A stretch of DNA of 64,000 nucleotides from Rikenellaceae bacterium (GTDB lineage: Bacteria > Bacteroidota > Bacteroidia > Bacteroidales > Rikenellaceae). Under the pieces are notes generated by a model. It was not told the origin of the DNA. It did no database searches and worked only from the letters and a program-made list of their open reading frames with translations. Positions 30,837 through 63,890 of this stretch are shown piece by piece. Made by a program: the position numbers and the translations under genes. The first letter of the stretch is position 1; the number at the start of each line of letters is the position of its first letter. Where the stretch lies: NCBI GenBank assembly GCA_015059845.1, contig SUZR01000009.1, positions 51,978-115,977 on the forward strand, read 5' to 3'.

Positions 30837-31026
30837 GAAGTCGTATAACGAGTGGTATTTTTAGGCTTGCGAAGTCCCAAGAAACCGCAGTTTACTCTAC
30901 GTAAATGAGGATTTCGAGGGCGAGCATAACGTTGCGTTTAAGCGAGGGCAGAGGGTGCTTGCACACTTTGCCGAGCGAAGCAACGAAAAGAAACTTAACG
31001 CCAAAATCACCTTGTTAAACGGCTTC
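30837..31026 (-). repeat. Family 1 structured element, copy A (after rnpB)
   Basis: Outer arms GAAGTCGTATAACGAG and CTTGTTAAACGGCTTC pair; inside are GCTTGC/GCGAGC, GAAA/TTTC and GTTTAC/GTAAAT. It lies about ten bases beyond the RNase P RNA 3' end and before a terminator, read on the minus strand. A family 3 hairpin (30939-30990) is nested in the arm nearer rnpB. Confidence 0.75.
30939..30990 (+). repeat. Family 3 hairpin, copy 1
   Basis: Core GGTGCTTGCACACTTTGCC within GCGAGGGC...GAAAAG. It matches the reverse strand of 44582-44631, with GTGC/GCAC replaced there by ATGC/GCAT. Confidence 0.65.
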
Positions 31027-31035
31027 ATAATCATT

Positions 31036-31398
31036 GCAAATACTATAAGCCGAGTTCTGTACCTCTCACGAGGCCTCTATCATTTATCTACGACTGTGGT
31101 CACCCACAGCCTCTAGCAACCTACCCCCCGACATTGGACGAGCAACCCTTAATTGTCGGTATACGTGGTCTTGCAACCCGCAAGGCGTACGGCCGGTGAA
31201 CATTGCTGCCACCGCGGTGGGCTCTTACCCCACCTTTTCACCCTTACCTGCCAGCCAAAGCCGACATAGGCGGTTATTCTCTGTTACGCTACTACACCCT
31301 TACGGACATCGAGCCGTTAACTCGTGCGGTGCTCTGCGTTGCTCGGACTTTCCTCTCCCCTTTCGGGCAGCGATAGAGCGTATTTCCAATTTTTTACA
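31036..31398 (-). ncRNA. rnpB: RNase P RNA
   Basis: The catalytic RNA that matures tRNA 5' ends. On the minus strand the two universally conserved segments are clear: AGAGGAAAGTCCGAGC (near 31357) and ACAGAACTCGGCTTAT (near 31050). Between them lie the P10-P12 region with GGGTGAAAAGGTGGGGTAAG and the GAGAATAACC-type bulge. Terminal helix P1 is AAATAC / GTATTT. The 5' limit is set by P1 and is approximate. Just upstream is a ten-pair stem (GGATAA-GCCC/GGGC-TTATCC), then 82-bp tandem repeats. The protein subunit is rnpA at 10.3 kb. Confidence 0.93.
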
Positions 31399-31430
31399 GG
31401 ATAAGCCCGCTACTCTTGCTAATGGGCGTT

Positions 31431-31640
31431 ATCCCAATATTTTTAGGCATACTATCGAATAAGGCCCTTCGGCTAATCACGGTAGTACCGCCTGCCTGAA
31501 CAAACGGACCTTATCCTAATATTTTTAGGTACACTATCGAATAGCGACCTTCGCCTAATCACGGTAGTACCGCCTGCCTGAACAAACGGACCTTATCCCA
31601 ATATTTTTAGGCATACTATCGAATAGCGACCTTCTCTCCT
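31431..31640 (-). repeat. 82-bp tandem repeats on the 5' side of rnpB
   Basis: Two full units (31431-31512, 31513-31594) and a partial third (from 31595). Each begins ATCC(C/T)AATATTTTTAGG in the plus sense and contains CGGTAGTACCG, a small hairpin. The first bases of the unit directly join the rnpB 5' flank. If the promoter at 31665 is used they are transcribed as part of the rnpB precursor. Confidence 0.9.
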
Positions 31641-31664
31641 AATAATCCTTAGCGTGGACTATTT

Positions 31665-31694
31665 CAAAGTTTGCTCGACAAGCGTAACGACAAA
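31665..31694 (-). promoter_or_regulatory. Candidate rnpB promoter
   Basis: Minus strand TTTG, 18 bases, AAACTTTG. The -33 box and spacer fall inside a half copy of the family 1 element after recJ. One mismatch in the -7 box and short spacing make this tentative. Confidence 0.4.
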
Positions 31695-31712
31695 ACAGCC
31701 CAATTTGCCAAT
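31674..31712 (-). repeat. Family 1 structured element, half copy E (after recJ)
   Basis: Minus strand AAAATTGGCAAATTGGGCTG followed by TTTTGTCGTTACGCTTGTC. This matches the first third of copy C and begins directly after the recJ stop codon (31715-31717). Confidence 0.65.
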
Positions 31713-31714
31713 TT

Positions 31715-33478
31715 TTACTTAACTACGGGCTTTATATCCTTAATACGCAGCTGCGTAGTTACCGTTCCGCGATAGTGATTCTCCACAATCTGGTAGCACA
31801 CATCAATCGGACGTCCCGAGCGCACCCACTCGTAATGCGTGGGCTGCTGGAAGGCGATAGTCTGGATGGTGGTGTTCGGCTTCTGCTTCTGCACCAAATC
31901 CATACGCAGATGCTCCATATCCGCTCCCACCAACTTCGCCTCGCCGTGGGCACTCGCTCCATACGTCGCAAAGACGGGAGCCGTATTACCCGGGCCGAAG
32001 GGCTGGAAGCTGTTGAGCTGGCGGTGGAACGCAGGCGTGATATCCGAGAAGAGCAACTCGCTATCCACATCTACCTGCGGCACCAGAATCTGCGGGTCGA
32101 TATGCTTCTCCACATAGTCGTTGAAGCGCTCCTTGAAGGCCTCAACATTCTCGGGACGCATCGTAAGACCTGCGGCGTACATATGTCCACCGAAGTTTTC
32201 AAGCAAATCCGAGCACGACTCCACAGCCTGATACAGGTCAAAGCCGGGGACAGAGCGTGCCGAGCCTGTAACGAAGCCGTTGCTCATCGTCAGCACCACC
32301 GTAGGACGGTAGTAGGTCTCGATAAGGCGCGAGGCAACGATACCCACGATACCCTTCATCCACTTGGGATTGTAGATAACCGTACACTTGCGGTTCTTCA
32401 GGTGGGGATTCGACTCAATGTAGTCGTGCGCCTCCTGCGTAACGCTGCGGTCGATGTTCTTACGGTCCTGATTGTAAGAGTCAATAACATCACAGAACTC
32501 ACGCGCCTGACGCTCGTTACCCTCAACGAGCAACTCCACAGCGGCAAAGCCTCCGCTCGGAGCGGCATTCTCATCGTTCTCGTCCATACGCATACGCCCT
32601 GCGGCGTTTATACGCGGACCAATCTTAAATACAATGTCGTCGATAGTGATAGCCTGACGGTCCAGACCACAAATCTTGATTATCGACAACAGACCCGACG
32701 ACGGCATACGGTTCAAACGCTCCAAACCATAGTAGGCAAGGATACGATTCTCGCCCGTAAGCGGTACGATGTCGGATGCAATACTTACCACGAGCAGGTC
32801 CAACAGATGCTCAATCTCCTTAAACGGAATACCGTGCTTCTGCGCATAAGCCTGCACGAGTTTGAATCCCACGCCACAACCTGACAACTCGTTGAACGGG
32901 TAGTTACAGTCGTTGCGCTTCGGATCCAGAACTGCTACGGCCGAGGGAATCTCGTCGGCCGGAAGATGGTGGTCGCAGATAATGAAATCCACGCCCTTCT
33001 CCTTCGCATAAACAACCTTTTCTACGGCTTTAATTCCGCAATCCAGAGCAATGGCGAGCGTTACACCCTTGCGGGCCGCAAAGTCAATGCCCTTGACCGA
33101 AATGCCGTAACCGTCGTTATAACGATCGGGAATGTAGAAAACAAGGTTCTTGTGACCTATCTGCCTCAAAAACTTATAAACCAGCGCCACGGCTGTCGTA
33201 CCGTCCACGTCATAGTCGCCATAAACCATAATCATCTCGTTGTTTGCGACGGCGCGCTCGATACGCTCGACTGCTCGCTCCATATCCTTCATCAGGAAGG
33301 GGTCGTGCAGGTCCGAGAGCTGCGGGTTAAAGAATTTATTGGCCTTCTCTACGGTGTCTATGCCTCTCTGCACAAGTAGGTTCGTGAGAACGGGCGACAT
33401 TCGGAGGTGCGTAGCAAGACGCTCCACCGCCTCCTTCTCGCCGTTGGGTCTCACTACCCAACGCTTCTCTATAGGCAT
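31715..33478 (-). CDS. recJ: Single-stranded-DNA-specific exonuclease RecJ
   Basis: A 587-residue 5'-3' exonuclease for recombination and repair. DHH-family metal motifs: MVYGDYDVDGTTAVALVY, ALDCGIKAVE, FIICDHHLPA. The DHHA1 part carries SGLLSII and ARSVPGFDLYQAVESC, with the GGH motif in ENFGGHMYAAGLTMRP; an OB-fold follows. Length is normal. It is followed on the same strand by rnpB, and preceded by lipB with a 14-base gap. Confidence 0.95.
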   Translation of the reverse strand: MPIEKRWVVRPNGEKEAVERLATHLRMSPVLTNLLVQRGIDTVEKANKFFNPQLSDLHDPFLMKDMERAVERIERAVANNEMIMVYGDYDVDGTTAVALVYKFLRQIGHKNLVFYIPDRYNDGYGISVKGIDFAARKGVTLAIALDCGIKAVEKVVYAKEKGVDFIICDHHLPADEIPSAVAVLDPKRNDCNYPFNELSGCGVGFKLVQAYAQKHGIPFKEIEHLLDLLVVSIASDIVPLTGENRILAYYGLERLNRMPSSGLLSIIKICGLDRQAITIDDIVFKIGPRINAAGRMRMDENDENAAPSGGFAAVELLVEGNERQAREFCDVIDSYNQDRKNIDRSVTQEAHDYIESNPHLKNRKCTVIYNPKWMKGIVGIVASRLIETYYRPTVVLTMSNGFVTGSARSVPGFDLYQAVESCSDLLENFGGHMYAAGLTMRPENVEAFKERFNDYVEKHIDPQILVPQVDVDSELLFSDITPAFHRQLNSFQPFGPGNTAPVFATYGASAHGEAKLVGADMEHLRMDLVQKQKPNTTIQTIAFQQPTHYEWVRSGRPIDVCYQIVENHYRGTVTTQLRIKDIKPVVK

Positions 33479-33492
33479 AACTTACAATTTTA

Positions 33493-34191
33493 TTATTTAT
33501 ATATTTCAATTTTTAATTTTTCGCTTAAATGTTTTACAATCTGGCTTTTAACCAGCTCCATATCCACCTCGTGGCCAAGCTCCTTGCGTAGGCTCGTAAC
33601 ACCTCTATCGACAAAGCCGCAGGGGTTGATATGTGAAAAATATCTCAGGTCGGTGTTCACGTTCAACGCGAAGCCGTGCATCGTAACATAACGGCTCGAA
33701 CGCACACCAATGGCGCAAATCTTTCTTGCGCGCGGGCTGTCGCCCTCAATCCAAACTCCCGAAGCACCCGCCACGCGGCCCGCCTCGATGCCCCACTCTC
33801 GGCAGAGGTCGATAACAGCCCCCTCCAGAGCGTCGATATAATCTCTCAGGCCGATGCCTATCCTCTCCAAATCCAGAATAGGATAACCCACCACCTGACC
33901 CGGGCCGTGGAATGTGACATCACCGCCGCGGTCGATGTGGAAGAACTCGGCACCAATGGAGCGCAAATAGCTCTCCGAGACGAGCATATTCTCGTCCTTG
34001 CCGCTTTTGCCTAATGTGTAAACGGGATTGTGTTCGACCAGAAGTAGCCACCCAGCCTCGCGCTCAATCTGCGCGCGTGCCTCAGCGTCGCCCGCCTTGG
34101 CGGCAAGCATACGCTCGAAGAGCAAGCGCTGATAGTCCCAGCACTCGGAGTAGCCCATAAGGCCTAAGTCTTTGTACAATATCTCCTTCAT
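33493..34191 (-). CDS. lipB: Octanoyltransferase LipB
   Basis: A 232-residue enzyme that moves octanoate from acyl carrier protein to lipoyl domains. The start MKEILYKDLGLMGY at 34191 is favoured over a Met nine codons upstream. Family signatures: RGGDVTFHGPGQVVGYPILDL, and KICAIGVRSSRYVTMHGFALNVNTDL with the catalytic lysine, followed by INPCGFVDRGVTSL with the catalytic cysteine. It lies between lipA and recJ. Confidence 0.95.
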   Translation of the reverse strand: MKEILYKDLGLMGYSECWDYQRLLFERMLAAKAGDAEARAQIEREAGWLLLVEHNPVYTLGKSGKDENMLVSESYLRSIGAEFFHIDRGGDVTFHGPGQVVGYPILDLERIGIGLRDYIDALEGAVIDLCREWGIEAGRVAGASGVWIEGDSPRARKICAIGVRSSRYVTMHGFALNVNTDLRYFSHINPCGFVDRGVTSLRKELGHEVDMELVKSQIVKHLSEKLKIEIYK

Positions 34192-34269
34192 TTCGGTCAA
34201 AAGCCTGCTAATATGCAACGTGCCATCGGCCGAAGTAGAGCAAACCGCTTTAGAGCTTTCTAAAAAACT

Positions 34270-35157
34270 CTACCCTCTGGATTTGCGAACGCTCTCCAGA
34301 GCGGCGTCAGCCAGATATGACGAGCGCACCATAGGGGCGCTGGCACAGTAGCTGAAACCCATCTCAAGAGCCTGAGTGCGGTACCATTCAAATTTCTCTG
34401 GAGTGATATACGCCGCAACGGGATAGTGCTCCATAGAGGGTCGTAGGTACTGACCAAGCGTCACAATCTCGACACCCGCATTGCGCAGGTCTCGAAGGGT
34501 TTGCAATACTTCATCATCGCTCTCGCCAAGTCCGACCATCAGTCCACTCTTCGAGACTGCACCCGAGGCGGAGATAATCTCCAGCGTACGCATACTTGTG
34601 CGATACTTCGCACGCGCACGTACCAGCGGGGTGAGTCGCTCGACGGTTTCGATGTTGTGCCCGATAATATCGGGCTTGGATGCAGCCACAATCTCTATTA
34701 AATCGGCCCTTGCATCCAAATCGGGAATAAGGAGCTCAATTGTTGCGTCGGGATTACTACGACGGACGGCCTCCACCACTGCGGCCCAATGCTGGGCACC
34801 GCCGTCGGGAAGGTCATCGCGCGTAACAGAAGTCACGACAACGTGTCGAAGTCCCATAAGCCTCACACTCTCGGCCAACTTCTCCGGCTCGGAGGCATCG
34901 GGGGCAAGGGGTATGCCTGTCTTTGTCGCGCAGAATCGGCATCCGCGGGTACAAATATCGCCCAGAATCATAAATGTAGCCGTCCTACGACGCCAGCACT
35001 CGGCCTTATTAGGGCAGAGGCCACTGCTACAAATCGTATGCAACGAGTGCTCCCGAACGATACGCTCGACTTCGGCCGACTCCTCGTTACTTTGCAGACG
35101 GATTTTTAACCACTGGGGCTTCTTCAGCACATTTACCTTGTCATAAAACTTCGGCAT
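34270..35157 (-). CDS. lipA: Lipoyl synthase LipA
   Basis: A 295-residue radical-SAM enzyme that inserts sulfur into octanoyl groups made by LipB. Start MPKFYDKVNVLKKPQWLKIR at 35157; the upstream frame runs through the promoter. The auxiliary cluster cysteines are in CSSGLCPNKAEC, the radical-SAM cluster in CTRGCRFC, and the C-terminal RSSY serine ligand is present. The next gene is lipB, 78 bases on; together they form the lipoylation unit. Confidence 0.96.
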   Translation of the reverse strand: MPKFYDKVNVLKKPQWLKIRLQSNEESAEVERIVREHSLHTICSSGLCPNKAECWRRRTATFMILGDICTRGCRFCATKTGIPLAPDASEPEKLAESVRLMGLRHVVVTSVTRDDLPDGGAQHWAAVVEAVRRSNPDATIELLIPDLDARADLIEIVAASKPDIIGHNIETVERLTPLVRARAKYRTSMRTLEIISASGAVSKSGLMVGLGESDDEVLQTLRDLRNAGVEIVTLGQYLRPSMEHYPVAAYITPEKFEWYRTQALEMGFSYCASAPMVRSSYLADAALESVRKSRG

Positions 35158-35184
35158 TTTAAGTTCATTATTTTCCAATTGATG

Positions 35185-35192
35185 CAAAGATA
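35185..35192 (-). promoter_or_regulatory. -7 box of lipA
   Basis: Minus strand TATCTTTG, 27 bases ahead of the lipA ATG. No clear -33 element. Confidence 0.6.
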
Positions 35193-35256
35193 CTAAAAAA
35201 ATCAAAAGCATCACTATTTTTTCTTAAAAAATGACTGCCCGCACTAAAAAAATTAC

Positions 35257-35264
35257 TACTTTTG
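35257..35264 (+). promoter_or_regulatory. -7 box of apt
   Basis: TACTTTTG, 41 bases ahead of the chosen apt start, which makes the upstream ATG at 35231 impossible as a start for this transcript. Confidence 0.65.
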
Positions 35265-35305
35265 TTCTATCACAGCCACATATTGGCACAAAAGCAGTTT
35301 TACAG

Positions 35306-35866
35306 ATGAAAGAGGCTCTAAAATTTTATAAAGATTTCCCCAAGGAGGGTATCGTTTTCGTGGACATCATTCCACTCCTGCAAGACAAAAAAATATTCAC
35401 GCAGCTCATCGCTGAGATAGGCGACAAACTCACCGCTCCCAACATCGCGGCACCCGAGGCGCGAGGCTTTCTGTTCTCGGCTCCGCTGATGGTTGCAAAA
35501 GAGGAGGTGCAGACGATTATCCCCATTCGCAAGAGTGGCAAACTGCCTTACAATGAGGGAGATTTGTGTGACGTAGAGATTGAGAAGGAGTACGGCTCAG
35601 ACCACCTCTTCTACCGCCTGAGCGACATTGCCGCAGCGGCAGCCGAGGGTGACGAGATTCACATCTCAATCCTCGATGACCTGCTCGCTACGGGCGGCAC
35701 GGCCGAGGGCATTGCACGCTCGATGATGAGCCAGAAAATTGTGAAGGATGGCCGCGAGTACAAGGTGGTGATTGACGAGTTCATCTTCCTGGTGGAGCTA
35801 GACTTCCTGAAGGGTGCCGAGCGACTGGAGAAGATTGCCCCCGTGAAGTCGATAATTCATTTGTAG
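35306..35866 (+). CDS. apt: Adenine phosphoribosyltransferase
   Basis: A 186-residue purine salvage enzyme forming AMP from adenine and PRPP. Start MKEALKFYKDFPKEGIVFVD is the usual N-terminus. It has APEARGFLFSAPLM and the PRPP-binding loop ISILDDLLATGGTAEGIAR. The C-terminus (DEFIFLVELDFLKGAERLEK) is normal. It is transcribed alone; a terminator separates it from ileS. Confidence 0.93.
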   Translation: MKEALKFYKDFPKEGIVFVDIIPLLQDKKIFTQLIAEIGDKLTAPNIAAPEARGFLFSAPLMVAKEEVQTIIPIRKSGKLPYNEGDLCDVEIEKEYGSDHLFYRLSDIAAAAAEGDEIHISILDDLLATGGTAEGIARSMMSQKIVKDGREYKVVIDEFIFLVELDFLKGAERLEKIAPVKSIIHL

Positions 35867-35891
35867 AGTAGAGATATTAGCACAATGCAGA

Positions 35892-35917
35892 AGGCGTCCA
35901 TTGGGCGTCTTTTTTTG
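35892..35917 (+). terminator. apt terminator
   Basis: Stem AGGCGTCC / GGGCGTCT with an ATT loop (35892-35910), then seven Ts. Confidence 0.85.
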
Positions 35918-35966
35918 TTATAGCCCCCATAAACTCTTCTCGTTAGCCTAATTCTTAATTTTGAAT

Positions 35967-35997
35967 TTTGCATTTTGCATTTATATCCGTATATTTG
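35967..35997 (+). promoter_or_regulatory. ileS promoter
   Basis: TTTG (35967-35970), 19 bases, TATATTTG (35990-35997). The leader of about 100 bases shows no T-box or other recognised element. Confidence 0.85.
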
Positions 35998-36106
35998 CAC
36001 GTTATATACCTTAATAATTAGGAAAAACACCCCCTTCGAGTGCCAAAAACAGGTACAACAAGGGCCGAAAAACGAAACAAAAAAGAGAATAAAATAAAAA
36101 TCCGCT

Positions 36107-39100
36107 ATGAAGTTCAACGAGTACAAAGGCCTCGACTTGGCGAAGGTCGCTGACGAGGTATTGAAGAAGTGGGATGCCGACGATACTTTCCACCAGAGCA
36201 TCACCACACGCGAGGGTCATCCCACGTTTGTCTTTTATGAGGGTCCCCCCTCAGCTAACGGTATGCCGGGTATTCACCACGTGATGGCCCGCACCATCAA
36301 GGATGTTATCTGCCGCTACAAGACACAGCAGGGTTACCTCGTACACCGTAAGGCGGGTTGGGACACACACGGTCTGCCCGTAGAGTTGGGTGTGGAGAAG
36401 AAGCTCGGCATCACCAAGGAGGATATCGGCAAGACAATCTCTATCGAGGAGTACAACCGCACCTGCCGCGAGGAGGTGATGAAGTTCACCGACGTATGGG
36501 AGAACCTGACAAAGAAGATGGGTTACTGGGTGAATATGGACGACCCGTATATCACCTACGACAACAAATATATCGAGACACTGTGGTGGCTTCTGAAGCA
36601 GCTCTTCGACAAGGGCTTGCTCTATAAGGGTTACACCATTCAGCCCTACTCGCCCGCAGCAGGTACAGGTCTTTCGACACACGAGCTGAACCAGCCGGGC
36701 TGCTACCGCGACGTGAAGGATACAACGATGGTGGCACAGTTCCGCATTTTGGAGCCTAAGGCTGAGATGGAGGGTTGGGGTACGCCCGTATTCTTGGCGT
36801 GGACAACAACACCCTGGACCCTGCCCTCAAATACTGCACTCTGCGTAGGCCCGAAGATTGACTACGTGGCTGTTCGCACATACAACGGCTACACAGGCGA
36901 GAAGATTACCGCCGTATTGGCTGAGCCGCTGCTCTACTCACACTTCAACAAGAAGGCTGAGGGCCTTGCACTCGACTCATACAAGGCGGGCGACAAGCTC
37001 ATCCCCTTTGAGGTTGTAGGTCGCTGGAAGGGTCCCGAGCTGGTAGGTATGCACTACGAGCAGCTCATCCCCTGGGTGAAGCCCGTAGAGATGGACGAGG
37101 AGGGCAACTGGCACTCGGCTGCCGACAAGGCGTTCCGTGTGATTCCGGGTGACTACGTTACCGTAGAGGATGGTACGGGTATCGTACACATCGCTCCGAC
37201 GTTTGGTGCTGACGATGCCTTCGTAGCACGTCAGGCTGGTATTCCTTCGCTCTTTATGATTAACAAGCGCGGTGAGACACGCCCGATGGTTGACCTGACG
37301 GGTAAGTTCTACCTGATGGAGGAGCTGGACGAGAAGTTCGTCCAGGAGTGCGTAAACGCCGAGGCATACAAGGATTACGAGGGTCGCTGGGTGAAGAATG
37401 CTTACGACCCGCAGTTTACCGTAGATGGTCGCTATGACGAGGCTGCTGCGCAGGCGGCAGAGTCGCTCGATGTATATATCGCTATCAACCTCAAGGGCAT
37501 AAACAAGGCCTTCAAGATTGAGAAGCACACCCACAACTACCCCCACTGCTGGCGTACCGACAAGCCCGTATTGTACTACCCGCTGGATTCGTGGTTTATC
37601 AAGACCACGGCTCTCAAGGAGCGTATGATGGAGCTTAACGAAACCATTCTCTGGAAGCCCGAATCGACAGGTACAGGCCGCTTCGGCAAGTGGCTGGAGA
37701 ACCTGAACGACTGGAACCTCTCGCGTTCACGTTTCTGGGGTACTCCGCTGCCCATCTGGGCTACCGAGGACCGCACGGAGATGAAGTGCATCGGCTCGGT
37801 GGAGGAGCTTATGGCCGAGATTGAGAAGTCAATCGCCGCAGGCAATATGACCGAGAATCCGTTCAAGAACTTCAAGGTGGGCGATATGTCGAAGGAGAAC
37901 TACTCTACAGATAATATCGACCTGCACCGTCCCTATGTTGACTCTATCGTTCTGACCTCATCGACAGGCGCGCCGATGAAGCGCGAGAGCGATTTGATTG
38001 ACGTATGGTTTGACTCAGGTGCTATGCCCTACGCACAGATTCACTACCCGTTCGAGAACAGCGGTGCCGACTTCAAGGAGGTATTCCCCGCAGACTTCAT
38101 CGCCGAGGGTGTGGACCAGACACGTGGTTGGTTCTTCACGCTGCACGCCATCGCTACGATGTTGTTCGACTCGGTGGCCTTCAAGAATATCATCTCTAAC
38201 GGTTTGGTATTGGACAAGAACGGCAACAAGATGTCGAAGCGTCTGAACAACGCCGTTGACCCCTTCGAGGTGCTCTCAACATACGGTGCGGATGCTACAC
38301 GCTGGTATATGATTTCAAACTCGCAGCCGTGGGATAACCTTAAGTTTGACAAGGAGGGCGTTGACGAGGTGCGTCGTAAGTTCTTCGGCACGCTCTACAA
38401 TACATACTCATTCTTCGCACTCTACGCCAACGTGGATGGTTTCACAGGCAGCGAGCGCGAGATTCCCGTAGCGGAGCGTCCCGAGATTGACCGTTGGATT
38501 ATCTCGGTGCTGAATACACTCGTAAAGGATGTAACGAAGTATCTTAATGACTACGACCCCACACCCGCAGCACGCGCCATTCAGGACTTCGTGAACGAGA
38601 ACCTCTCGAACTGGTATGTACGTCTGAACCGCAAGCGTTTCTGGGGTGGCGGTATGACCGACGACAAGTTGGCTGCATATCAGACCCTCTACACCTGCTT
38701 GGAGACCGTAGTGAAGTTGGCTGCGCCCTTCGCACCCTTCATCACCGACCAGATCTTCTGTGACCTCAACGCTATGAGCCGTCGCCACGCCGAGTCGTCG
38801 GTACACCTGGCTCAGTTCCCCGTAGTGGATATGACTCTGGTGAACAGCGACCTCGAGCAGACGATGGATATCGCACAGCGCGTATCGTCAATGGTATTGG
38901 CTCTGCGCCGCAAGGTGAACATCAAGGTGCGTCAGCCGCTGACAAAGATTCTGATTCCCGTTCTGGACCAGGATATGGCACGCCACATCGAGGCTGTGAA
39001 GGCTCTGATTATGGGTGAGGTGAACATCAAGGATATTGAGCTGCTGAGCGACACAACAGGTATCATCACCAAGCGCATCAAGCTCAACTTCAAGAACTTC

Positions 39101-45746: not shown

Positions 45747-46040
45747 TGGGGAGATATTTCGCTGTAACTGCTCTTAACAATCTAATGGTCGCTCCCTGCC
45801 ATTAATCATCGCCTTCGCATAACACCCCAGCACTTTTTTCAACCTTTCACACTCCTTATTTTAGTTTTACTAAAACCAAGTATTTCATTTTCTGTTTCTA
45901 AAATCTAAGTTTTTAGGCGCGAGAAGGGCAAAAAAGAGGAGAATCTAAGGAGTAAACTCCATAGATAGATAGATGGAAATAATAGATAAATATTAAGAAC
46001 GGAGGAGGTTTTTTGGGGGGGGGTAGGCAGTTGGGGGGGC
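45747..46040. other. Low-complexity intergenic stretch
   Basis: About 300 bases between convergent genes with no credible frame. It contains GGAGTAAACTCC (a palindrome), a short GATA microsatellite (GATAGATAGATGG), and G runs of eight and seven. No promoter box was found. Confidence 0.55.
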
Positions 46041-46041
46041 T

Positions 46042-46147
46042 CGTATAATGAGGTTATTTTGAGGCTGGTCGAAGGGCAAGAAACCGCAGCATACAAAAGT
46101 ATGTGAGGATTTCTTAACCGAGCCTGACGCAAAAAAAACATTAGACG
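46042..46147 (-). repeat. Family 1 structured element, copy B (after rnhB)
   Basis: Outer arms CGTATAATG (46042-46050) / CATTAGACG (46139-46147), then GGCT/AGCC and GGT/ACC, AAGAAA/TTTCTT and CATAC/GTATG. The innermost stem is GTTTAC/GTAAAT in other copies, so both sides changed together. It begins four bases beyond the rnhB stop. Confidence 0.75.
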
Positions 46148-46151
46148 GATT

Positions 46152-46748
46152 TTAGAACAACTCCATTTGGCCTTCAAGATGATTAAACGTCATACGATGA
46201 TATGGCGTGAGTCCATACTCGCGGATGGCGAGGCGGTGCTCCCGGGTGGGATAACCCTTATTTCTATCCCAGCCATAGTGGGGAAATTCCTCGTGCAGAC
46301 GCATCATATACTCGTCACGATGTGTTTTGGCCAGAACGGATGCAGCAGCGATATTGGCATACTTGCCATCGCCCTTGACGATACACTTAAACGGCAGGCC
46401 CGAGTGCGAGGTGAAGCGGTTGCCATCAATAGAGAGGAACTGCGGTGCGACCTTGAGGTTTGCCGCGGCGATATTCATACCTTCGATTGAGGCGCGCAGG
46501 ATATTTATCTCGTCAATGCGTGCTGCCGTAACCTCCGCAACGGCCCACGCCACGGCCTCGCGCTCGATAACCTCGCGCAAAAGATTACGCTGACGCTCGG
46601 TCATCTGCTTCGAGTCGTTGAGCAGCGGGTGGTAGAAGTCGGGCGGCAGGATAACCGCCGCAGCAAAGACACTGCCGGCAAGACAGCCACGTCCCGCCTC
46701 ATCACAACCCGCCTCAAGGAGTTCTTGTTGATAGCTATTTTCTAACAT
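46152..46748 (-). CDS. rnhB: Ribonuclease HII
   Basis: A 198-residue endonuclease that cuts RNA in RNA-DNA hybrids and misincorporated ribonucleotides. The acidic site begins with AGCDEAGRGCLAGSVFAAAVIL; DSKQMTERQRNLL, ASVLAKTHRDEYM and HYGWDRNKGYPTREH are family segments. A minus-strand TAACTTTG box (46756-46763) lies only eight bases before the ATG, so the mRNA may be almost leaderless. It is followed by a family 1 element. Confidence 0.95.
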   Translation of the reverse strand: MLENSYQQELLEAGCDEAGRGCLAGSVFAAAVILPPDFYHPLLNDSKQMTERQRNLLREVIEREAVAWAVAEVTAARIDEINILRASIEGMNIAAANLKVAPQFLSIDGNRFTSHSGLPFKCIVKGDGKYANIAAASVLAKTHRDEYMMRLHEEFPHYGWDRNKGYPTREHRLAIREYGLTPYHRMTFNHLEGQMELF

Positions 46749-52855: not shown

Positions 52856-52892
52856 AAAAAAACTTCCCTTTTGTAGGAAGTTTTCTGTTTTT
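52856..52892. terminator. Bidirectional terminator after recR
   Basis: Stem AACTTCC / GGAAGTT (52861-52882), A-run before and T-rich after. On the minus strand it follows recR and the family 1 element. Confidence 0.75.
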
Positions 52893-52910
52893 TAGGCTTT
52901 TCAGCATTAT

Positions 52911-53030
52911 AAAATTGTATAGCAAGAGCTGATTTTAGGCTTGCGAAGTCCGAGAAAGCGGAGTTTACCGAGCGTAAATGAGCATTGCGAGGACAAGCGT
53001 AACGACAAAGCAGCCTTGTTAGACAATTTT
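52911..53030 (-). repeat. Family 1 structured element, copy C (after recR)
   Basis: The most complete copy. Outer arms AAAATTGT (52911-52918) / ACAATTTT (53023-53030), then AAG-GCTG-like pairs with CAGC-CTT, GCTTG/CAAGC, GTCC/GGAC and inner GTTTAC/GTAAAT. Its first bases overlap the recR stop codon (53029-53031). A terminator follows 28 bases later on the minus strand. Confidence 0.8.
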
Positions 53031-53625
53031 ACTCTATCTCGCGGCGATTGAGTAGCGCGTGTGTGATGGTCAGCTCATCGACATACTCCAGCTCGTCGCC
53101 AAAACCAATTCCGCGCGCTATGGTCGTCACCTTCACCTGCGGGTAGGCCTTCAGACGATTCATAATATAAAAGAGTGTGGTCTCGCCCTCCACCGAGGTA
53201 GATATGGCCAGAATAACCTCTCTCACGGCACCCGACGCCACCTTCTCAAGCAGCAGGTCAATCTTCAAATCCGAGGGGCCCACGCCCTGCATAGGCGAGA
53301 TAACACCGCCCAAGACGTGATACAGGCCACGGTACTGGCGCGTATTCTCGATTGACATCAGGTCACCCACCTGCTCCACAACGCAGATTGTTGTGCGGTC
53401 GCGCTCAGGATTCTCGCATATAGGACAGCGAGGCGTATCCGAGAGGTTGTTGCACAGCTCGCAGTGGCGTATCTCGCGGCGGAAGCGGGCGATGCTACCC
53501 ATCATCTGCTCCACAGCTGCCGTATCCATCTTCAGCAGGTGCATACTCAGACGCAACGCCGTACGACGACCAATACCCGGGAGCTTGGAAAACTCCGAAA
53601 CAGCCTCTTGTAGTAGTTTTGACAT
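53029..53625 (-). CDS. recR: Recombination mediator RecR
   Basis: A 198-residue DNA-repair protein of the RecFOR pathway. The N-terminal helix-hairpin-helix LPGIGRRTALRLSMHLL, the C4 zinc finger CELCNNLSDTPRCPIC, and a Toprim domain (TICVVEQVGDLMSIE; GVISPMQGVGP) are all present. Complete and of usual length. It begins one base after the BatE-like gene stop, as the last gene of that operon. Confidence 0.96.
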   Translation of the reverse strand: MSKLLQEAVSEFSKLPGIGRRTALRLSMHLLKMDTAAVEQMMGSIARFRREIRHCELCNNLSDTPRCPICENPERDRTTICVVEQVGDLMSIENTRQYRGLYHVLGGVISPMQGVGPSDLKIDLLLEKVASGAVREVILAISTSVEGETTLFYIMNRLKAYPQVKVTTIARGIGFGDELEYVDELTITHALLNRREIE

Positions 53626-58013: not shown

Positions 58014-58068
58014 AAGTTTAGTTTTATTTTATTTGTTTTGTAGTTCGTTACAAAAGTCTAAATCTTCG

Positions 58069-58099: not shown

Positions 58100-58105
58100 G
58101 CGAGC

Positions 58106-58120
58106 GGCAATCTTCTTGCC
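58106..58120 (-). terminator. Weak hairpin after the phosphodiesterase gene
   Basis: GGCAA/TTGCC with a five-base loop; no T-run directly after it on the minus strand, so only a tentative terminator. Confidence 0.3.
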
Positions 58121-58138
58121 TCAGCACACCCGTTTCCG

Positions 58139-59020
58139 CTACTCAAAGACCTGGCTCATAGATTGTCCGCGCCATACCTGCGGAGTCTGGAGAGCGAAAA
58201 TCTCGGCGATGGTTGCAGCCGTGTCGTACTGCATCATATACTCCTTAAACTCGCCGCCCTTCTTCACGTTCTTGCCAGCGATGACAAACGGAGTATCCAT
58301 CTCCATAAGGCTACGGCCGCCGTGGCTGGTGTTGATACCGCCGTGGTCGGCAGTAATGATGAAGATACTATCGTCGTAGATACCTGCCTCCTTAACCGCC
58401 TCAACGATGCGACCCAGGCAAGCGTCCAGTTCCTCCATCTTGGCGTAATACTCAGGCGTGTCGTGACCTGCGCTGTGGCCCACGTGGTCGGGGTCGTCGT
58501 AGATGACAACCATAAATTCGGGCTTCTTGCTCTTGATGTAGTCGATTGTCACGTCTGCAATATTCTCGGGTTTCTCCTTGACGCAGAAGTTGATAGCCGC
58601 AGGGTCAATCAGAGGCTTGATACCGCCCCACTCATACACGCAGGCTGTCTCCGCCTCGGGCATCTGCTCGCGCACCAGCGAGAAGATTGTGGGGAAGCTG
58701 CCATTTGCGTTTACATATACGGGTTGCACATCGGGACCACTGCCGTTGTTTGACCAGCCGTGGAACTCGCAGGGGGCACCCATAAACATTGAGGCCCAGT
58801 TGGGAGCGCTATCCGAGGGGAGCACGGTACGCTTCTGGAGGGTGTAGCAACCCTGCTCCATAAAGGCGCGGGTGTTGGGCATCTTGACAGAATCCATACA
58901 ATATGAGCCCCAGCCATCGAAAGCAATCAGAAATACGTGCTTGGCTTTTGGCTCGTTAGACTCGGGAGCGCAGGCAACAACAAAGGCCATCGCCATAACA
59001 AAGAGGAATAATCTTTTCAT
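58139..59020 (-). CDS. Alkaline phosphatase-superfamily lipoprotein (nucleotide pyrophosphatase-like)
   Basis: A 293-residue lipoprotein with signal MKRLFLFVMAMAFVVAC (Cys17). The fold is the phosphodiesterase/nucleotide pyrophosphatase type: FLIAFDGWGSYC (metal Asp), PSDSAPNWASMFMGA (nucleophile region), IYDDPDHVGHSAGHD and ITADHGGINTSHGG (metal His/Asp). It should cleave phosphate esters outside the inner membrane. The substrate is unknown. It stands alone. Confidence 0.9.
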   Translation of the reverse strand: MKRLFLFVMAMAFVVACAPESNEPKAKHVFLIAFDGWGSYCMDSVKMPNTRAFMEQGCYTLQKRTVLPSDSAPNWASMFMGAPCEFHGWSNNGSGPDVQPVYVNANGSFPTIFSLVREQMPEAETACVYEWGGIKPLIDPAAINFCVKEKPENIADVTIDYIKSKKPEFMVVIYDDPDHVGHSAGHDTPEYYAKMEELDACLGRIVEAVKEAGIYDDSIFIITADHGGINTSHGGRSLMEMDTPFVIAGKNVKKGGEFKEYMMQYDTAATIAEIFALQTPQVWRGQSMSQVFE

Positions 59021-59118
59021 AAGGAATCATTTTCAGTTAAATCATACAAAAATACTCTTTTTTATGATAAACTCCAATCTGTTTGGGCGACAATTATCGA
59101 TTCTTTCAATAAAATTTA

Positions 59119-59126
59119 TATCTTTG
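59119..59126 (+). promoter_or_regulatory. -7 box of ridA
   Basis: TATCTTTG, 88 bases before the ATG. No TTTG at the expected -33 spacing. Confidence 0.55.
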
Positions 59127-59214
59127 TGGTCGGCCGCCGTGGCTAAAGGGTGAGTTTTTTGATGCCTGCACGGCCAGCAACAGAGAATTTTTAATTTTAG
59201 AAAACAATAAAACT

Positions 59215-59589
59215 ATGAAAAAGATTATCGCATCACCCCTCGCGCCGAAGGCGGTGGGTCCCTATTCACAGGCCGTTGAGAGCAACGGTACACTCTATGT
59301 TTCAGGTCAGTTGCCCATCGACGCCGCAACGGGCAAGATGGCCGAGGGTATTGAGGAGCAGACTCGTCAGTCGCTCACCAACATCCGCTACATCGTGGAG
59401 GAGGCTGGCTACACGCTCGCCGATGTAACAAAGGTTACCGTTCTGCTGGATGATATCGCCGACTTCGCCGCAATGAATGGCGTATATGCTACATTCTTTA
59501 CCGAGCAGATGCCCGCCCGCGTATGCTACGAGGTGGCTAAGCTACCGATGGGTGCCAAGGTGGAGATTGACGCTACGGTCACTCGCTAA
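59215..59589 (+). CDS. ridA: RidA family enamine/imine deaminase
   Basis: A 124-residue protein that hydrolyses reactive enamines and imines made by PLP enzymes. Signatures: APKAVGPYSQAVESNGTLYVSGQLPID, a GIEEQTRQSLTNI helix and the active-site arginine in ARVCYEVAKLPMGAKVEIDA. Complete and of standard length. It has its own promoter and is followed by a terminator before nrdJ. Confidence 0.95.
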   Translation: MKKIIASPLAPKAVGPYSQAVESNGTLYVSGQLPIDAATGKMAEGIEEQTRQSLTNIRYIVEEAGYTLADVTKVTVLLDDIADFAAMNGVYATFFTEQMPARVCYEVAKLPMGAKVEIDATVTR

Positions 59590-59613
59590 AGAAAAATATT
59601 TTTCTCGAAAAAC

Positions 59614-59652
59614 ACGCGTCGGAGATAGCTCTGGCGCGTATTTTTATTTTTG
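59614..59652 (+). terminator. ridA terminator
   Basis: Stem ACGCG (59614-59618) / CGCGT (59635-59639) with inner GAG/CTC, then T-rich sequence. Confidence 0.75.
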
Positions 59653-59792
59653 TTGATAACCTTGTCGAAAAATAGTCGCAGAAAAATTGGTTTTACCACA
59701 CTTTTTTTAAGACCTTTGTATTGGTGCTTTACGCGCTCTGACGTCACGCATACACACATTTCGAAAGATAAAATTATAATATACAAGCAATT

Positions 59793-62339
59793 ATGTCTAA
59801 AGAACCTAAAAAACTCACCGAGGTGAGCTACAACGACGCCGTGGCTGCGTCGAAAGAGTATTTCGCCGGTGATGACCTTGCTGCTACCGTATGGGTGAGC
59901 AAATATGCGCTGAAGGATTCCTACGGCCATATCTACGAGCGCACACCCGAGGATATGCACCATCGCATCGCCGCAGAAATCGAGCGCATCGAGATGAAGT
60001 ACCCCAACCCTCTGAAGAAGGAGGAGGTATTCTCGTTGCTCGACCATTTCCGTTACATTATCCCCCAGGGTGGCCCTATGACCGGTATCGGTAACACGTT
60101 GCAGGTGGCTTCATTGTCAAACTGCTTCGTTATCGGCAACCGCCAGCACGCCGACTCGTACGGCGGTATCTTCCGTATGGACGAGGAGCAGGTGCAGCTG
60201 ATGAAGCGCCGCGGTGGCGTGGGTCACGACCTCTCGGAGTTGCGCCCCACAGGCTCACCCGTATTGAACTCGGCTCTCACATCGACCGGTATCGTTCCCT
60301 TTATGGAGCGTTACTCAAACTCTACACGCGAGGTTGCACAGGATGGCCGTCGTGGAGCATTGATGCTCTCACTCTCTATCAAGCACCCCGATGCAGAGCG
60401 TTTCATCGATGCAAAGACTCAGTCAGGCAAGGTGACTGGTGCGAACGTATCTATCAAGATTGACGACGAGTTTATGCGCGCCGCACACGAGGGTCGCACA
60501 TACCGTCAGCAGTTCCCCATCAACAGCAACGAGCCTAAGATGACTGCCGACATCGACGCTAAGAAGTTGTGGGACAAGATTATCCACAACGCTTGGCAGT
60601 CAGCCGAGCCCGGCGTATTGTTCTGGGATACAATCATCCGCGAGAGTGTGCCCGACTGCTATGCAGACCTCGGTTTCAATACAGTTTCTACAAACCCCTG
60701 CGGTGAGATTCCATTGTGCCCCTACGACAGCTGCCGTCTGTTGGCATTGAACCTGTTGAGCTACGTGGAGAATCCATTTACGAAGGATGCAAAGTTCAAC
60801 TTCGACCTCTTCCGCGAGCACGTAGGCAAGGCTATGCGTATGATGGATGATATCATCGACCTCGAGTTGGAGAAGGTTGAGCAGATTATCTCGAAGGTGG
60901 CAAGCGACCCCGAGGAGGCAGACATCCGCCACGTCGAGCACGAGTTGTGGCTCAAGATTAAGGATATGGCTCTGCGCGGCCGCCGTACAGGTTTGGGTAT
61001 CACAGCCGAGGGCGATATGTTGGCAGCGTTGGGTCTGCGCTACGGCTCGGACGAGGCTATCGACTTCGCCGTAAGCGTACACCGCACATTGGCCGTAGAG
61101 GCATATCGCGCATCTGTGAAGATGGCCGAGGAGCGTGGTGCATTCCCCATCTATGATGCAGCACGCGAGGCATCGAATCCTATGATTCAGCGTATTAAGG
61201 AGGCTGACCCCGAGCTCTACGAGCAGATGGTGAGGAACGGCCGCCGTAACATCGCAATGCTTACCATTGCACCTACGGGTACCACATCGCTTATGTCGCA
61301 GACAACATCGGGTATCGAGCCTGTGTTCCGCCCCGTATATAAGCGTCGCCGCAAGATTAACCCCTCGGATAGAGGCAAGAAGGCCGACTTCGTTGACGAG
61401 ATGGGCGAGAAGTTCGAGGAGTACTATGTATATCACCACCAGTTTGTTAAGTGGCTGGAGAAGAATGGCTACGACACATCGAAGTTGCAGACAATCACCG
61501 ACGAGGAGCTATCAAAGTGGCTGGAGGCATCGCCCTACCACGGCGCTACGGCAAACGATATCGACTGGGTTGCCAAGGTGCGTATGCAGGGTGCTATTCA
61601 GAAGTGGGTGGACCACTCTATCTCGGTTACCGTTAACCTCCCGAACGATGTGAGCGAGCAGCTGGTAGCTGACGTATATCACACAGCGTGGGAGTGCGGC
61701 TGTAAGGGTGTTACGGTTTATCGTGACGGCTGCCGCACAGGCGTACTTATCGACACCAAGAGCAAGAAGGATAACAAGAAGTGCGACTCGGGCAACAGCA
61801 CGCAGAAGCGTCCAAAGTCAATTTCCGCCGACGTCGTACGTTTCAAGAACGGTAGCGAGCCGTGGATTGCATTTGTAGGTATTCAGAACGACCGCCCCTA
61901 CGAGATTTTCACCGGTAAGATTGAGGAGGATGCAATGTATATTCCGCCAAAGATTACGAAGGGTTGGATTATCAAGGTGCGCGAGGAGGATGGCTCAAAG
62001 CGTTACGACTTCCAGTACAAGGACCGCTACGGATATGTAAATACTATCGGTGGTATTTCACGTTTGTTCGACGAGGAGTTCTGGAACTACGCCAAGCTTA
62101 TTTCGGGCGTATTGCGTCACGGAATGCCTATTGACAAGGTGGTACATCTCATCGACGGTCTGCACCTGAACAGCGAGAGTATCAACACCTGGAAGAATGG
62201 TGTGCAGCGCGCTCTGAAGCAGTACATTGCCGACGGCACAAAATCGAAGGGCAAATGTCCGCAGTGCGGCCAGGAGGAGATGGCTTACCAGAACGGTTGC
62301 CTGACCTGTATGTCGTGCGGATACTCGAAATGCGGTTAA
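59793..62339 (+). CDS. nrdJ: Adenosylcobalamin-dependent (class II) ribonucleotide reductase
   Basis: An 848-residue enzyme that reduces ribonucleotides using B12, working with or without oxygen. Core motifs: SYGGIFRMDEEQVQLMKRRGGVGHDLSELRP, NPCGEIPLCPYDSCRLLALNLL (active-site Cys and NxCxE), and LTIAPTGTTSLMSQTTSGIEPVF. The C-terminus ends in a zinc ribbon CPQCGQEEMAYQNGCLTCMSCG. The 200-base upstream region shows no cobalamin riboswitch that I can recognise. Strong codon bias suggests high expression. Confidence 0.95.
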   Translation: MSKEPKKLTEVSYNDAVAASKEYFAGDDLAATVWVSKYALKDSYGHIYERTPEDMHHRIAAEIERIEMKYPNPLKKEEVFSLLDHFRYIIPQGGPMTGIGNTLQVASLSNCFVIGNRQHADSYGGIFRMDEEQVQLMKRRGGVGHDLSELRPTGSPVLNSALTSTGIVPFMERYSNSTREVAQDGRRGALMLSLSIKHPDAERFIDAKTQSGKVTGANVSIKIDDEFMRAAHEGRTYRQQFPINSNEPKMTADIDAKKLWDKIIHNAWQSAEPGVLFWDTIIRESVPDCYADLGFNTVSTNPCGEIPLCPYDSCRLLALNLLSYVENPFTKDAKFNFDLFREHVGKAMRMMDDIIDLELEKVEQIISKVASDPEEADIRHVEHELWLKIKDMALRGRRTGLGITAEGDMLAALGLRYGSDEAIDFAVSVHRTLAVEAYRASVKMAEERGAFPIYDAAREASNPMIQRIKEADPELYEQMVRNGRRNIAMLTIAPTGTTSLMSQTTSGIEPVFRPVYKRRRKINPSDRGKKADFVDEMGEKFEEYYVYHHQFVKWLEKNGYDTSKLQTITDEELSKWLEASPYHGATANDIDWVAKVRMQGAIQKWVDHSISVTVNLPNDVSEQLVADVYHTAWECGCKGVTVYRDGCRTGVLIDTKSKKDNKKCDSGNSTQKRPKSISADVVRFKNGSEPWIAFVGIQNDRPYEIFTGKIEEDAMYIPPKITKGWIIKVREEDGSKRYDFQYKDRYGYVNTIGGISRLFDEEFWNYAKLISGVLRHGMPIDKVVHLIDGLHLNSESINTWKNGVQRALKQYIADGTKSKGKCPQCGQEEMAYQNGCLTCMSCGYSKCG

Positions 62340-62367
62340 AAATCGGGTAAAATAGCATACTTAACTG

Positions 62368-62429
62368 CGCAAAGATGTAAAAAAAAGGATAAAGACTTGT
62401 TTTTTTATTTTTTTATTTACATCTTTGCG
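62368..62429. promoter_or_regulatory. ompA promoter region with a 14-bp inverted repeat
   Basis: CGCAAAGATGTAAA (62368-62381) and its exact complement TTTACATCTTTGCG (62416-62429) are separated by 34 AT-rich bases. The right arm contains CATCTTTG, a near -7 box, with CTTG 19 bases upstream, reading to the OmpA gene. The left arm carries the mirrored box on the minus strand. Confidence 0.6.
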
Positions 62430-62548
62430 TTGTGTATCCCGTATTCTGAACCATAATTTGGCGCAGAAAATGTGGAATTATGCTTTTTACCTTTATTAAT
62501 TAACGTGTGTAAAACAAGATTTTTATAGCACAATAAACAATTTAATTT

Positions 62549-63706
62549 ATGAAAAAGTTTTTACTTTCTATCGCTATTGTAGCGTTCTCTATGGGTAGCG
62601 TATTTGCTCAGGAGAATTCAGCAGAGAAGCTCCGCTGGAAGGGAATTATGAACAACGGCTTCTGGTCTAACTGGGAGATTGGTATCGCTGGTGGTATCAA
62701 TGGCACAGCTTGGAACGATGCTTTTGGCACAGATCAGGGAGCTATAGGTGACCTCGGTTGGCAGATTGAGGGTAATGTAACTAAGTGGTTTAACCCTATC
62801 GTAGGTGCTCGTGTTCAGTTGATTGGTGGCCGATTAAATGCTTCTGATGATTATTTGAAGAATTATTGGATTATGCCTCACGCAGATGCAGTTTTGAATC
62901 TCTCTAACTGGTTTGGTGGCTACCGCGAGGATCGTGTTTACTATGCAAAGGTATTTGCTGGTGCTGGTGTTAACTTTGTAAATGTAAACAACGACGGCAC
63001 TTCAGGTTTTGCAGGTGTTGCAGGTTTGATTAATACTTTCCGTGTATGCAAGCAGTTGGATATCAACCTTGAGTTGAAGGGTATCCTTTCTGCAGGTCGT
63101 GATATGCCTCGTGGTATTAATACAATCGCTGCTAAGTATGGTCAGATTTACTCTGCAACATTGGGTATCGCTTACCGCTTCAACAAGCGCGACTGGAACA
63201 AGGCTTACTCACAGGAGGAGATCGATGCATACTTGGCATCAATCGCTGCTTTGGAGTCAAGCTTGGCAGATGCTCACCGCAACGAGGGTAAGTTGGCAGA
63301 GCGTTTGGCTGCTCAGAAGGCTGCTACAGATCAGGCTTTGAAGGACAACGAGGCTTTGCGTGCTGAGTTGGCTAAGCGTAAGAACTCTGTAGTTTCTTCA
63401 TCAGCTATCTTCTTCAACTTCGACAGCGCTCGTTTGACAGACCGTGCTAAGGCTTCTATGCAGGTTCTTCAGGAGACTATCGCTGCTGCTCCCAAGGATC
63501 AGGTATTCACTATCGTTGGTCACGCAGATGTTAAGACTGGTTCTGCTGCATACAACCAGAAGCTCTCTGAGAAGCGTGCTAAGGCTGTTTACGACTACCT
63601 CGTAGAGCAGGGTGTAAACAAGGATCAGTTGACTTGGAAGGGTGTTGGTTCTTCAGAGAACATCTTCCCTGTTAACAACACTAACCGCGTTGTTATCGTA
63701 AAGTAA
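62549..63706 (+). CDS. OmpA-family outer-membrane protein
   Basis: A 385-residue protein with signal peptide MKKFLLSIAIVAFSMGSVFA. Residues 30-215 form an eight-strand barrel (WEIGIAGGINGTAW; SATLGIAYRFNKRDW). A coiled coil follows (about 222-280, LESSLADAHRNEGKLAERLAAQKAA) and then the peptidoglycan-binding OmpA domain (IFFNFDSARLTDRAKASMQVLQ; LSEKRAKAVYDYLVEQGV). It links outer membrane and cell wall. T-ending codons differ from neighbours, the bias of a very highly expressed gene. Confidence 0.95.
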   Translation: MKKFLLSIAIVAFSMGSVFAQENSAEKLRWKGIMNNGFWSNWEIGIAGGINGTAWNDAFGTDQGAIGDLGWQIEGNVTKWFNPIVGARVQLIGGRLNASDDYLKNYWIMPHADAVLNLSNWFGGYREDRVYYAKVFAGAGVNFVNVNNDGTSGFAGVAGLINTFRVCKQLDINLELKGILSAGRDMPRGINTIAAKYGQIYSATLGIAYRFNKRDWNKAYSQEEIDAYLASIAALESSLADAHRNEGKLAERLAAQKAATDQALKDNEALRAELAKRKNSVVSSSAIFFNFDSARLTDRAKASMQVLQETIAAAPKDQVFTIVGHADVKTGSAAYNQKLSEKRAKAVYDYLVEQGVNKDQLTWKGVGSSENIFPVNNTNRVVIVK

Positions 63707-63725
63707 TTTTAGCGATATAACAGAT

Positions 63726-63756
63726 AAGGCTCACCTTCGGGTGGGCCTTTTTTTGT
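63726..63756 (+). terminator. ompA terminator
   Basis: Stem AAGGCTCACC / GGTGGGCCTT with a TTCG-type loop, then T7. Confidence 0.9.
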
Positions 63757-63779
63757 TTGGTGTATGATATAGCAAAGAA

Positions 63780-63803
63780 AAAAGGCTGCTCGTTTGAGCA
63801 ACC
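63780..63803 (-). terminator. Minus-strand terminator near the right edge
   Basis: On the minus strand GGTTGCTC AAAC GAGCAGCC followed by TTTTTTC. It implies a minus-strand gene to the right whose 3' end carries family 1 copy D. Confidence 0.75.
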
Positions 63804-63814
63804 TCCTTACCTAA

Positions 63815-63890
63815 AAATTGTATAATAAGGCTATTTTGAAGCTGGTCGCAGGCCGAGAAAGCGGAGTTTACAAGAAGTAAATAAATCAAC
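63815..63890 (-). repeat. Family 1 structured element, copy D (partial)
   Basis: AAATTGTATAATAAGGCT and GAAGCTGGTCGCAGGCCGAG, with the inner stem GTTTAC/GTAAAT at 63867-63881. The arm towards the right edge is degenerate. It precedes a minus-strand terminator, as copies A and C do. Confidence 0.65.

What the first reader, a model, noticed from the sequence alone, without database searches (positions are those of the whole stretch)
30837..63890. Family 1: an oriented, covarying ~120-base element placed between stop codons and terminators
Copies lie at 30837-31026, 46042-46147 and 52911-53030, with a partial copy at 63815-63890 and a half copy at 31674-31712. Arms fold into one long hairpin. 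Stems change in pairs: inner GTTTAC/GTAAAT versus CATAC/GTATG; middle GCTTGC/GCGAGC, GCTTG/CAAGC, GGCT-GGT/ACC-AGCC; outer AAAATTGT/ACAATTTT versus CGTATAATG/CATTAGACG, with an unpaired A kept at one position in all. Read in the sense of the upstream gene, the element starts at or within about 10 bases of the 3' end of recR, rnhB, recJ and rnpB, always in the same orientation, and an intrinsic terminator follows in copies A, C and D. So it is transcribed as a 3' untranslated structure. It could be a 3'-end stabiliser, a source of small RNAs, or a mobile element that targets terminators.
Basis: seen in the sequence. Interest (0 to 1): 0.8.

Follow-up and report, generated by a model that had tools for sequence, protein, structure and literature searches.

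The report
Phylum-spanning relatives of ERIC hairpin repeats
The hairpin repeat that follows gene ends in this gut bacterium matches, in sequence and fold, repeats in at least three bacterial phyla and ERIC repeats of enterobacteria, and it likely spreads as selfish DNA that depends on one folded strand.

Summary
The window holds three full and two partial copies, the genome about 40 matches, and 37 of 49 genomes of the genus carry the element. Covariation is very strong here and in 42 copies from other phyla (0 of 500 shuffles reach the observed values in either set).

First, the well-folding strand is opposite the upstream gene: it folds better in 27/28 copies here, 45/49 from other phyla and 15/15 ERIC-type or intermediate copies, with G·U kept and A·C avoided. 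So it is not optimised as an mRNA 3'-UTR structure. Second, the family is not local: a covariance model built only from other-phylum copies finds the window copies (best E 2.7e-14) and some enterobacterial ERIC repeats (best E 6.1e-7; E. coli-type ERIC only weakly). Rfam has no match above its cut-offs.

Best reading: a non-autonomous mobile palindrome, kin to ERIC, whose spread likely needs one folded strand and which persists where it harms least, just after stop codons. Its mobiliser is unknown; no REP-type (Y1) or DUF772 transposase was found in 49 draft genomes. ERIC itself is known; the cross-phylum family and strand rule did not appear in the open papers I could search.

The parts
30835..31026 (+). 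Copy A, long composite form with an extra module (about 30946-31000), next to the 3' end of rnpB; strand given is the folding strand
   Evidence: R1 30835-30945, 66.7 bits; R2 E 1.8e-12; sequence
31677..31715 (+). Half copy at the recJ stop
   Evidence: BLAST G000:C7:83654-83692, 85%
46035..46154 (+). Copy B, its end overlapping the rnhB stop codon
   Evidence: R1 80.5 bits; R2 E 2.4e-10
52909..53032 (+). Copy C, its end overlapping the recR stop codon
   Evidence: R1 125.1 bits (C is in the model); R2 E 2.7e-14
63812..63890 (+). Copy D, partial
   Evidence: R1 34.7 bits over 63812-63931; R2 0.059
30800..30828 (.). Terminator-like hairpin beside copy A (read by eye)
   Evidence: sequence
52861..52882 (.). 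Terminator-like hairpin beside copy C (read by eye)
   Evidence: sequence
63784..63803 (.). Terminator-like hairpin beside copy D (read by eye)
   Evidence: sequence
31030..31389 (-). rnpB (RNase P RNA)
   Evidence: RF00010, 240.7 bits
31715..33478 (-). recJ
   Evidence: TIGR00644
46152..46748 (-). rnhB
   Evidence: NF000595
53029..53625 (-). recR
   Evidence: TIGR00615

Best explanation
The element is a multi-copy palindrome of a cross-phylum family related to enterobacterial ERIC repeats, and it likely spreads as a non-autonomous mobile element whose movement would require one particular strand to fold into the conserved hairpin. Shown: family, copy numbers, structure, strand asymmetry, patchy presence. 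Inferred: that the folded strand is the substrate or intermediate of movement (probably single-stranded DNA), and that the place just after stop codons, mostly in one orientation, is what selection leaves, since that orientation keeps the strong hairpin out of the neighbouring gene's mRNA. The enzyme is unknown.
For: 0/500 shuffles reach the covariation in 28 genomic copies or in 42 others. The same strand folds better in 27/28, 45/49 and 15/15 copies; folding strand 70 G.U to 4 A.C cells (28 of the 70 in one invariant pair), mRNA strand 21 to 20, 19 of the 21 in one column. Runs of identical scores with at least 150 copies in a Nitrosomonadales genome. R2 finds 11 of 11 own-genome loci tried and ERIC of Pantoea at E 6.1e-7. 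The strand rule is kept where orientation to genes is absent.
Against: Copies are related, so strand counts are not independent trials, and RNA and DNA folds cannot be told apart. No enzyme or intermediate was found. E. coli-type ERIC scores only 12 bits with R2 (E 0.4; seven loci) and one ERIC-type locus, L414, gave no hit. TA at both ends in 16 of 41 non-Bacteroidota-type copies but only 4 of 29 Bacteroidota-type; no target duplication could be read at orthologous sites.
Confidence: 0.55

Rival explanations
1. Ordinary MITE: a DDE transposase of a resident insertion sequence recognises only the terminal repeats; the hairpin is incidental.
For: TA at both palindrome ends in 16 of 41 non-Bacteroidota-type copies against AT 5, GC 5, CG 1 (AG..CT also 16, as many ends read TAG..CTA). 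In Marinobacter BGYM27 an insertion sequence with a DUF772 transposase has ends that match the element's in 13 of 16 bases.
Against: Covariation and strand-specific wobble along the stem are not needed for it; no DUF772 domain in 49 genomes of the genus (other DDE families not searched); no partner with the same ends in the own genome; patterns of this length hit often by chance (35 control hits against 71).
Confidence: 0.28
2. The folding strand is made as a small antisense RNA with a regulatory role.
For: RNA energies favour that strand; a terminator-like hairpin lies upstream of its 5' end in 72 of 124.
Against: Presence is patchy between sister genomes; no match above cut-off in Rfam; no own promoter shown.
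Confidence: 0.09
3. 3'-end stabiliser or small-RNA source in the upstream gene's mRNA.
For: Same-strand stop at the left end in 102 of 124, median 2 nt.
Against: The mRNA strand is the poorer folder with A.C mismatches; orientation 28 to 12 in tandem pairs, absent outside the Bacteroidota.
Confidence: 0.05
4. A REP element moved by a RAYT, or an attC-like recombination site.
For: Hairpin with bulges, one strand favoured, placed after stop codons; GTCTAAC and GTTATAC resemble attC R boxes (attC features recalled).
Against: No Y1 transposase in 49 genomes; no integron integrase above cut-off in the own genome; copies are mostly single and scattered, not cassette arrays.
Confidence: 0.03

Closest known systems
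ERIC / IRU / RU-1 (enterobacterial repetitive intergenic consensus)
   Same: Imperfect palindrome of about 120-127 bases, the same apical loop (GGAG-YTTAC..GTAAR-TGA), AGGC and AACRC blocks on the arms, intergenic, multi-copy, the same strand the better folder.
   Different: Other outer arms; described for Enterobacteriaceae and Vibrionaceae (PMC10969869, passages), here in Bacteroidota and others; E. coli-type copies score only 12 bits with R2.
Intergenic repeat families of Pseudomonas fluorescens (R0, R2 and others; PMC2718517, passages)
   Same: MITE-like hairpins enriched between convergent genes.
   Different: Kinship not tested; their sequences are in a supplement I could not open.
REP / REPIN with RAYT
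   Same: Dispersed hairpins outside genes.
   Different: No Y1 transposase in 49 genomes; much longer; other sequence.
RUP / Correia-type MITEs (PMC2229807, passages)
   Same: Short, TA at ends, no coding capacity.
   Different: Their terminal repeats are family constants; here arms vary from copy to copy and stay complementary.

Membership tests
ERIC / IRU | Covariance-model match over the whole element | tested here: inconclusive
   R2 (built without enterobacterial copies): Pantoea 30.1 bits, E 6.1e-7; L420 26.5; L416 22.1; L368 and L365 19.8; L421 17; L411 16.4; seven E. coli-type loci 12 bits (E 0.4); L414 no hit. R1 on E. coli ERIC 15.1 bits, E 0.01 in 1 kb.
ERIC / IRU | Conserved loop and arm blocks in the same order | tested here: met
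   AGGC 20 nt before GGAG in 13 of 14 ERIC-type loci, AACRC 12-24 nt after TGA in 13 of 14; comparable spacing (18 and 19 nt) in L407 of this family.
ERIC / IRU | TA ends and target duplication | tested here: inconclusive
   16 of 41 non-Bacteroidota-type, 4 of 29 Bacteroidota-type; empty sites too diverged.
ERIC / IRU | Host in Enterobacteriaceae or Vibrionaceae | tested here: not met
   28 of 80 titled hits are Bacteroidota, most others Pseudomonadota outside the enterobacteria.
ERIC / IRU | Orientation-dependent effect on upstream mRNA | not testable with these tools
   Reported for Yersinia ERIC (PMC2229807, passages).
REP / RAYT | Y1 transposase in carriers | tested here: not met
   0 of 49 genomes.
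Integron attC | Integron integrase | tested here: not met
   No match above cut-off in the own genome; best 90 bits against 265; relatives not searched.
MITE of a DDE transposon | Autonomous partner with the same ends | tested here: inconclusive
   None in the own genome or in plasmids with a Pseudomonas arm; one 13-of-16 likeness in Marinobacter.
Known Rfam family | Match at the gathering score | tested here: not met
   None in the window apart from RNase P; on seven loci one sub-threshold overlap, sX9 26.3 bits against 44, E 0.93, other strand (L145); none on copies B and C beyond a weak Phe_leader overlap, E 0.72.

The most novel reading that the evidence does not exclude
ERIC and these repeats are branches of one ancient, phylum-spanning class of mobile hairpin that propagates as a single folded strand. 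Its conserved apical loop is the fixed part, its arms are exchangeable but always self-complementary, and it uses a host or so far unrecognised enzyme, not a classical transposase.
Probability: 0.3. Interest if true: 0.85.

Novelty: new variant of a known kind. Interest (0 to 1): 0.66.

Why it matters
ERIC repeats underlie the ERIC-PCR typing method, yet how such repeats move is left as an open question (PMC2229807, passages). Placing ERIC among relatives in Bacteroidota, Pseudomonadota and Desulfobacterales, with apparent recent bursts in some genomes and none in sister genomes, turns the search for the mobiliser into a tractable comparison of genomes. The strand rule says which strand to use as bait.

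Tried and rejected
Sense 3'-UTR RNA: rejected on the strand tests. REP and attC readings: rejected. Autonomous partner with the same ends: not found in the own genome or in plasmids with a Pseudomonas arm; pattern searches in three other genomes gave one weak lead amid many control hits. Target duplication from orthologous sites: nine own loci compared, intergenic regions too diverged. A first alignment with wrong ends (A2) was replaced by A3; A5, poor outside the core, by A6. A paper search with six sequence words found 0 papers; topic searches listed nothing that describes this family outside the enterobacteria and Vibrio (listings, and passages of five papers).

Rows dropped and caveats: A6 uses 42 of the 51 stretches; nine were left out for inserts, divergence or no clear taxon (L126, L127, L137, L138 twice, L159, L175, L189, one of two in L196). 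Eight of the 42 (L201, L207, L213, L219, L231-L234) come from records whose titles were not shown and were judged non-Bacteroidota by sequence type; the same judgement was used for untitled loci. One search used 49 stretches of full length, one titled only 'uncultured bacterium'. One search kept 70 of 112 arm pairs. Searches kept 124 of 132 loci (8 at an edge or without motif); two of them (L311, L312) have identical flanks. Terminators there come from my own simple scan, which missed hairpins plain to the eye (for example L007, L008, L010), so 72 is a low count.

Full report
What is there. The window lies in an unnamed 2.09 Mb draft genome of 15 contigs, 92.6% complete. A covariance model of 28 genomic copies, copy C among them, gives four hits in the window, all with the folding strand on +: C, B, A and a partial D. 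BLAST with copy C lists 41 matches in the genome, the weakest a 14-base palindrome. Besides the form of about 120 bases there are forms of about 40 bases with the outer stem only (L037, L041, L042, L044), half forms (L031, L035, L045, L048, L050) and long forms of about 200 bases with an extra module (L057-L059, window copy A).

Structure. Across 28 full copies 97.3% of cells pair, 25 of 34 pairs have double changes, 0/500 shuffles reach any of the five measures, and slid structures pair in 29-43%. In 42 copies from outside the Bacteroidota the figures are 94.9%, 20 of 29 and 0/500, with up to 19 of 42 sequences doubly changed at one pair. Stems change freely but stay complementary, while the apical part AAASCGSAGYWTAC-N5-GTAWRTGAGSA is kept. 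In relatives the outermost arms differ between copies yet remain inverted repeats. One site shared with sister genome G016 has the same interior but other, largely complementary ends (L011 against L256).

Strand. The strand opposite the upstream gene is the better folder in 27 of 28 copies as RNA and 28 of 28 as DNA. RNAalifold gives -32.3 kcal/mol for it (28 copies) and -15.9 for the mRNA strand (22 copies; the sets differ). With the structure derived on the mRNA strand itself there are 20 A.C and 21 G.U cells, 19 of the G.U in one column; on the folding strand 70 G.U to 4 A.C, 28 of the 70 in one invariant pair; in the 42 other copies 80 to 17, 42 of the 80 in one invariant pair. The same strand folds better in 45 of 49 non-Bacteroidota stretches (46 as DNA) and in 15 of 15 ERIC-type or intermediate loci. 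Copies are related, so these are not independent trials, but avoidance of A.C in freely changing stems suggests continuing selection on one strand. RNA and single-stranded DNA would give the same signal. An earlier survey notes that ERIC structures can be predicted on both strands (PMC2267715, passages); the difference here is one of degree.

Placement. In 124 copies (27 own, 97 from the genus) the left end faces a same-strand stop codon in 102, at a median of 2 nt; the other end faces an opposite-strand stop in 83, at a median of 69 nt. In convergent gene pairs the left end is nearer in 61 of 67; in tandem pairs 28 follow and 12 oppose the genes; together 89 of 107 (binomial p 1.8e-12, which ignores relatedness). 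Terminator-like hairpins lie on the far side in 72 and on the near side in 9. In non-Bacteroidota-type copies of the named collection there is no orientation bias (tandem 18 against 22), in Bacteroidota-type copies 16 against 2. The strand rule is thus family-wide and the orientation rule lineage-specific, which suggests that the fold serves the element and not the neighbouring mRNA.

Spread. After recR, two of the 29 readable loci of 30 fetched carry the element, with different arms, and a third (L093) only a stretch that looks like the extra module. Nine contigs of G001 end 13 to 22 bases beyond a copy, as expected of near-identical repeats. In Nitrosomonadales NC_groundwater_1688 at least 150 copies score (the cap), many identically; P. 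chengduensis has 74. No Y1 or DUF772 domain was found in the 49 draft genomes. In the own genome the tyrosine recombinases found are of XerC/XerD size (306 and 321 aa; identity inferred) or lie in frames of 416-442 aa.

Kinship. Of the 80 whose titles were shown I count 28 Bacteroidota, 4 Desulfobacterales, 2 Deltaproteobacteria, 1 Acidobacteriota, 1 unassigned and 44 Pseudomonadota (Pseudomonas, Halomonas, Marinobacter, Nitrosomonadales and others). The four strongest matches to R1 among these loci are in Alistipes sp. MAGs, so the window's genus is probably Alistipes; no tool named it. R2, from 42 non-Bacteroidota copies, finds 11 of 11 own-genome loci tried, at 32 to 63 bits, and three window copies. 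The apical loop was used to collect these copies, but alone it is worth about 12 bits. Against ERIC, R2 gives 30.1 bits for Pantoea, 26.5 for L420, 22.1, 19.8 (two loci), 17.0 and 16.4 for others and 12 bits for seven E. coli-type loci; L414 gave no hit. Three loci collected by an ERIC-like loop pattern (L404, L397, L396) score 30 to 38 bits and look intermediate. ERIC-type loci keep AGGC 20 nt before GGAG in 13 of 14 and AACRC after TGA in 13 of 14. I conclude kinship with ERIC; strict membership is unproven.

Literature. ERIC is described with TA ends, target duplications and no known transposition mechanism (PMC2229807, passages), in Enterobacteriaceae and Vibrionaceae (PMC10969869, passages). 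Tail-to-tail placement is known for MITE-like repeats of P. fluorescens (PMC2718517, passages). Nothing on a cross-phylum family turned up in searches of the open library; the original ERIC papers were not available.

Mechanism. I commit to a mobile hairpin whose movement depends on one strand being folded. Shown: dispersal pattern, structure, strand asymmetry, family. Inferred: that the strand is recognised as single-stranded DNA, that orientation near stop codons is filtered by selection, and that the enzyme is not a classical one.

Noticed in passing
window 31436-31640: Tandem repeats of about 70-85 bases (TATTTTTAGGCATACTATCGAATA...) between rnpB and recJ, seen in the sequence.
   Followed up: no
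L007-L010, L012, L037, L041, L042, L057-L059; G016 loci L262-L266: The terminator beside many copies is itself a repeat (GAGGGTGCTAAC..GTTAGACACCCTC), so element and terminator may spread as one unit.
   Followed up: partly
L017 against L255 (G016:C98): The same site in a sister genome holds a different subfamily of the element.
   Followed up: partly
G001 contigs C2, C17, C20, C22, C34, C38, C40, C50, C60: Contigs break just beyond a copy, always on the side of the folding strand's 5' end: near-identical, probably recent copies.
   Followed up: no
L468-L473, L476 (Marinobacter sp. BGYM27): A repeated insertion sequence with a DUF772 transposase and ends GAGGCTGTAGAAAAAC, 13 of 16 like the element's ends in that genome.
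   Followed up: partly
L062, L076, L078: Pairs of copies 5-10 bases apart in the same orientation.
   Followed up: no
L093 (G033, after recR): Only the extra module of the long form, without the apical part, after recR.
   Followed up: no
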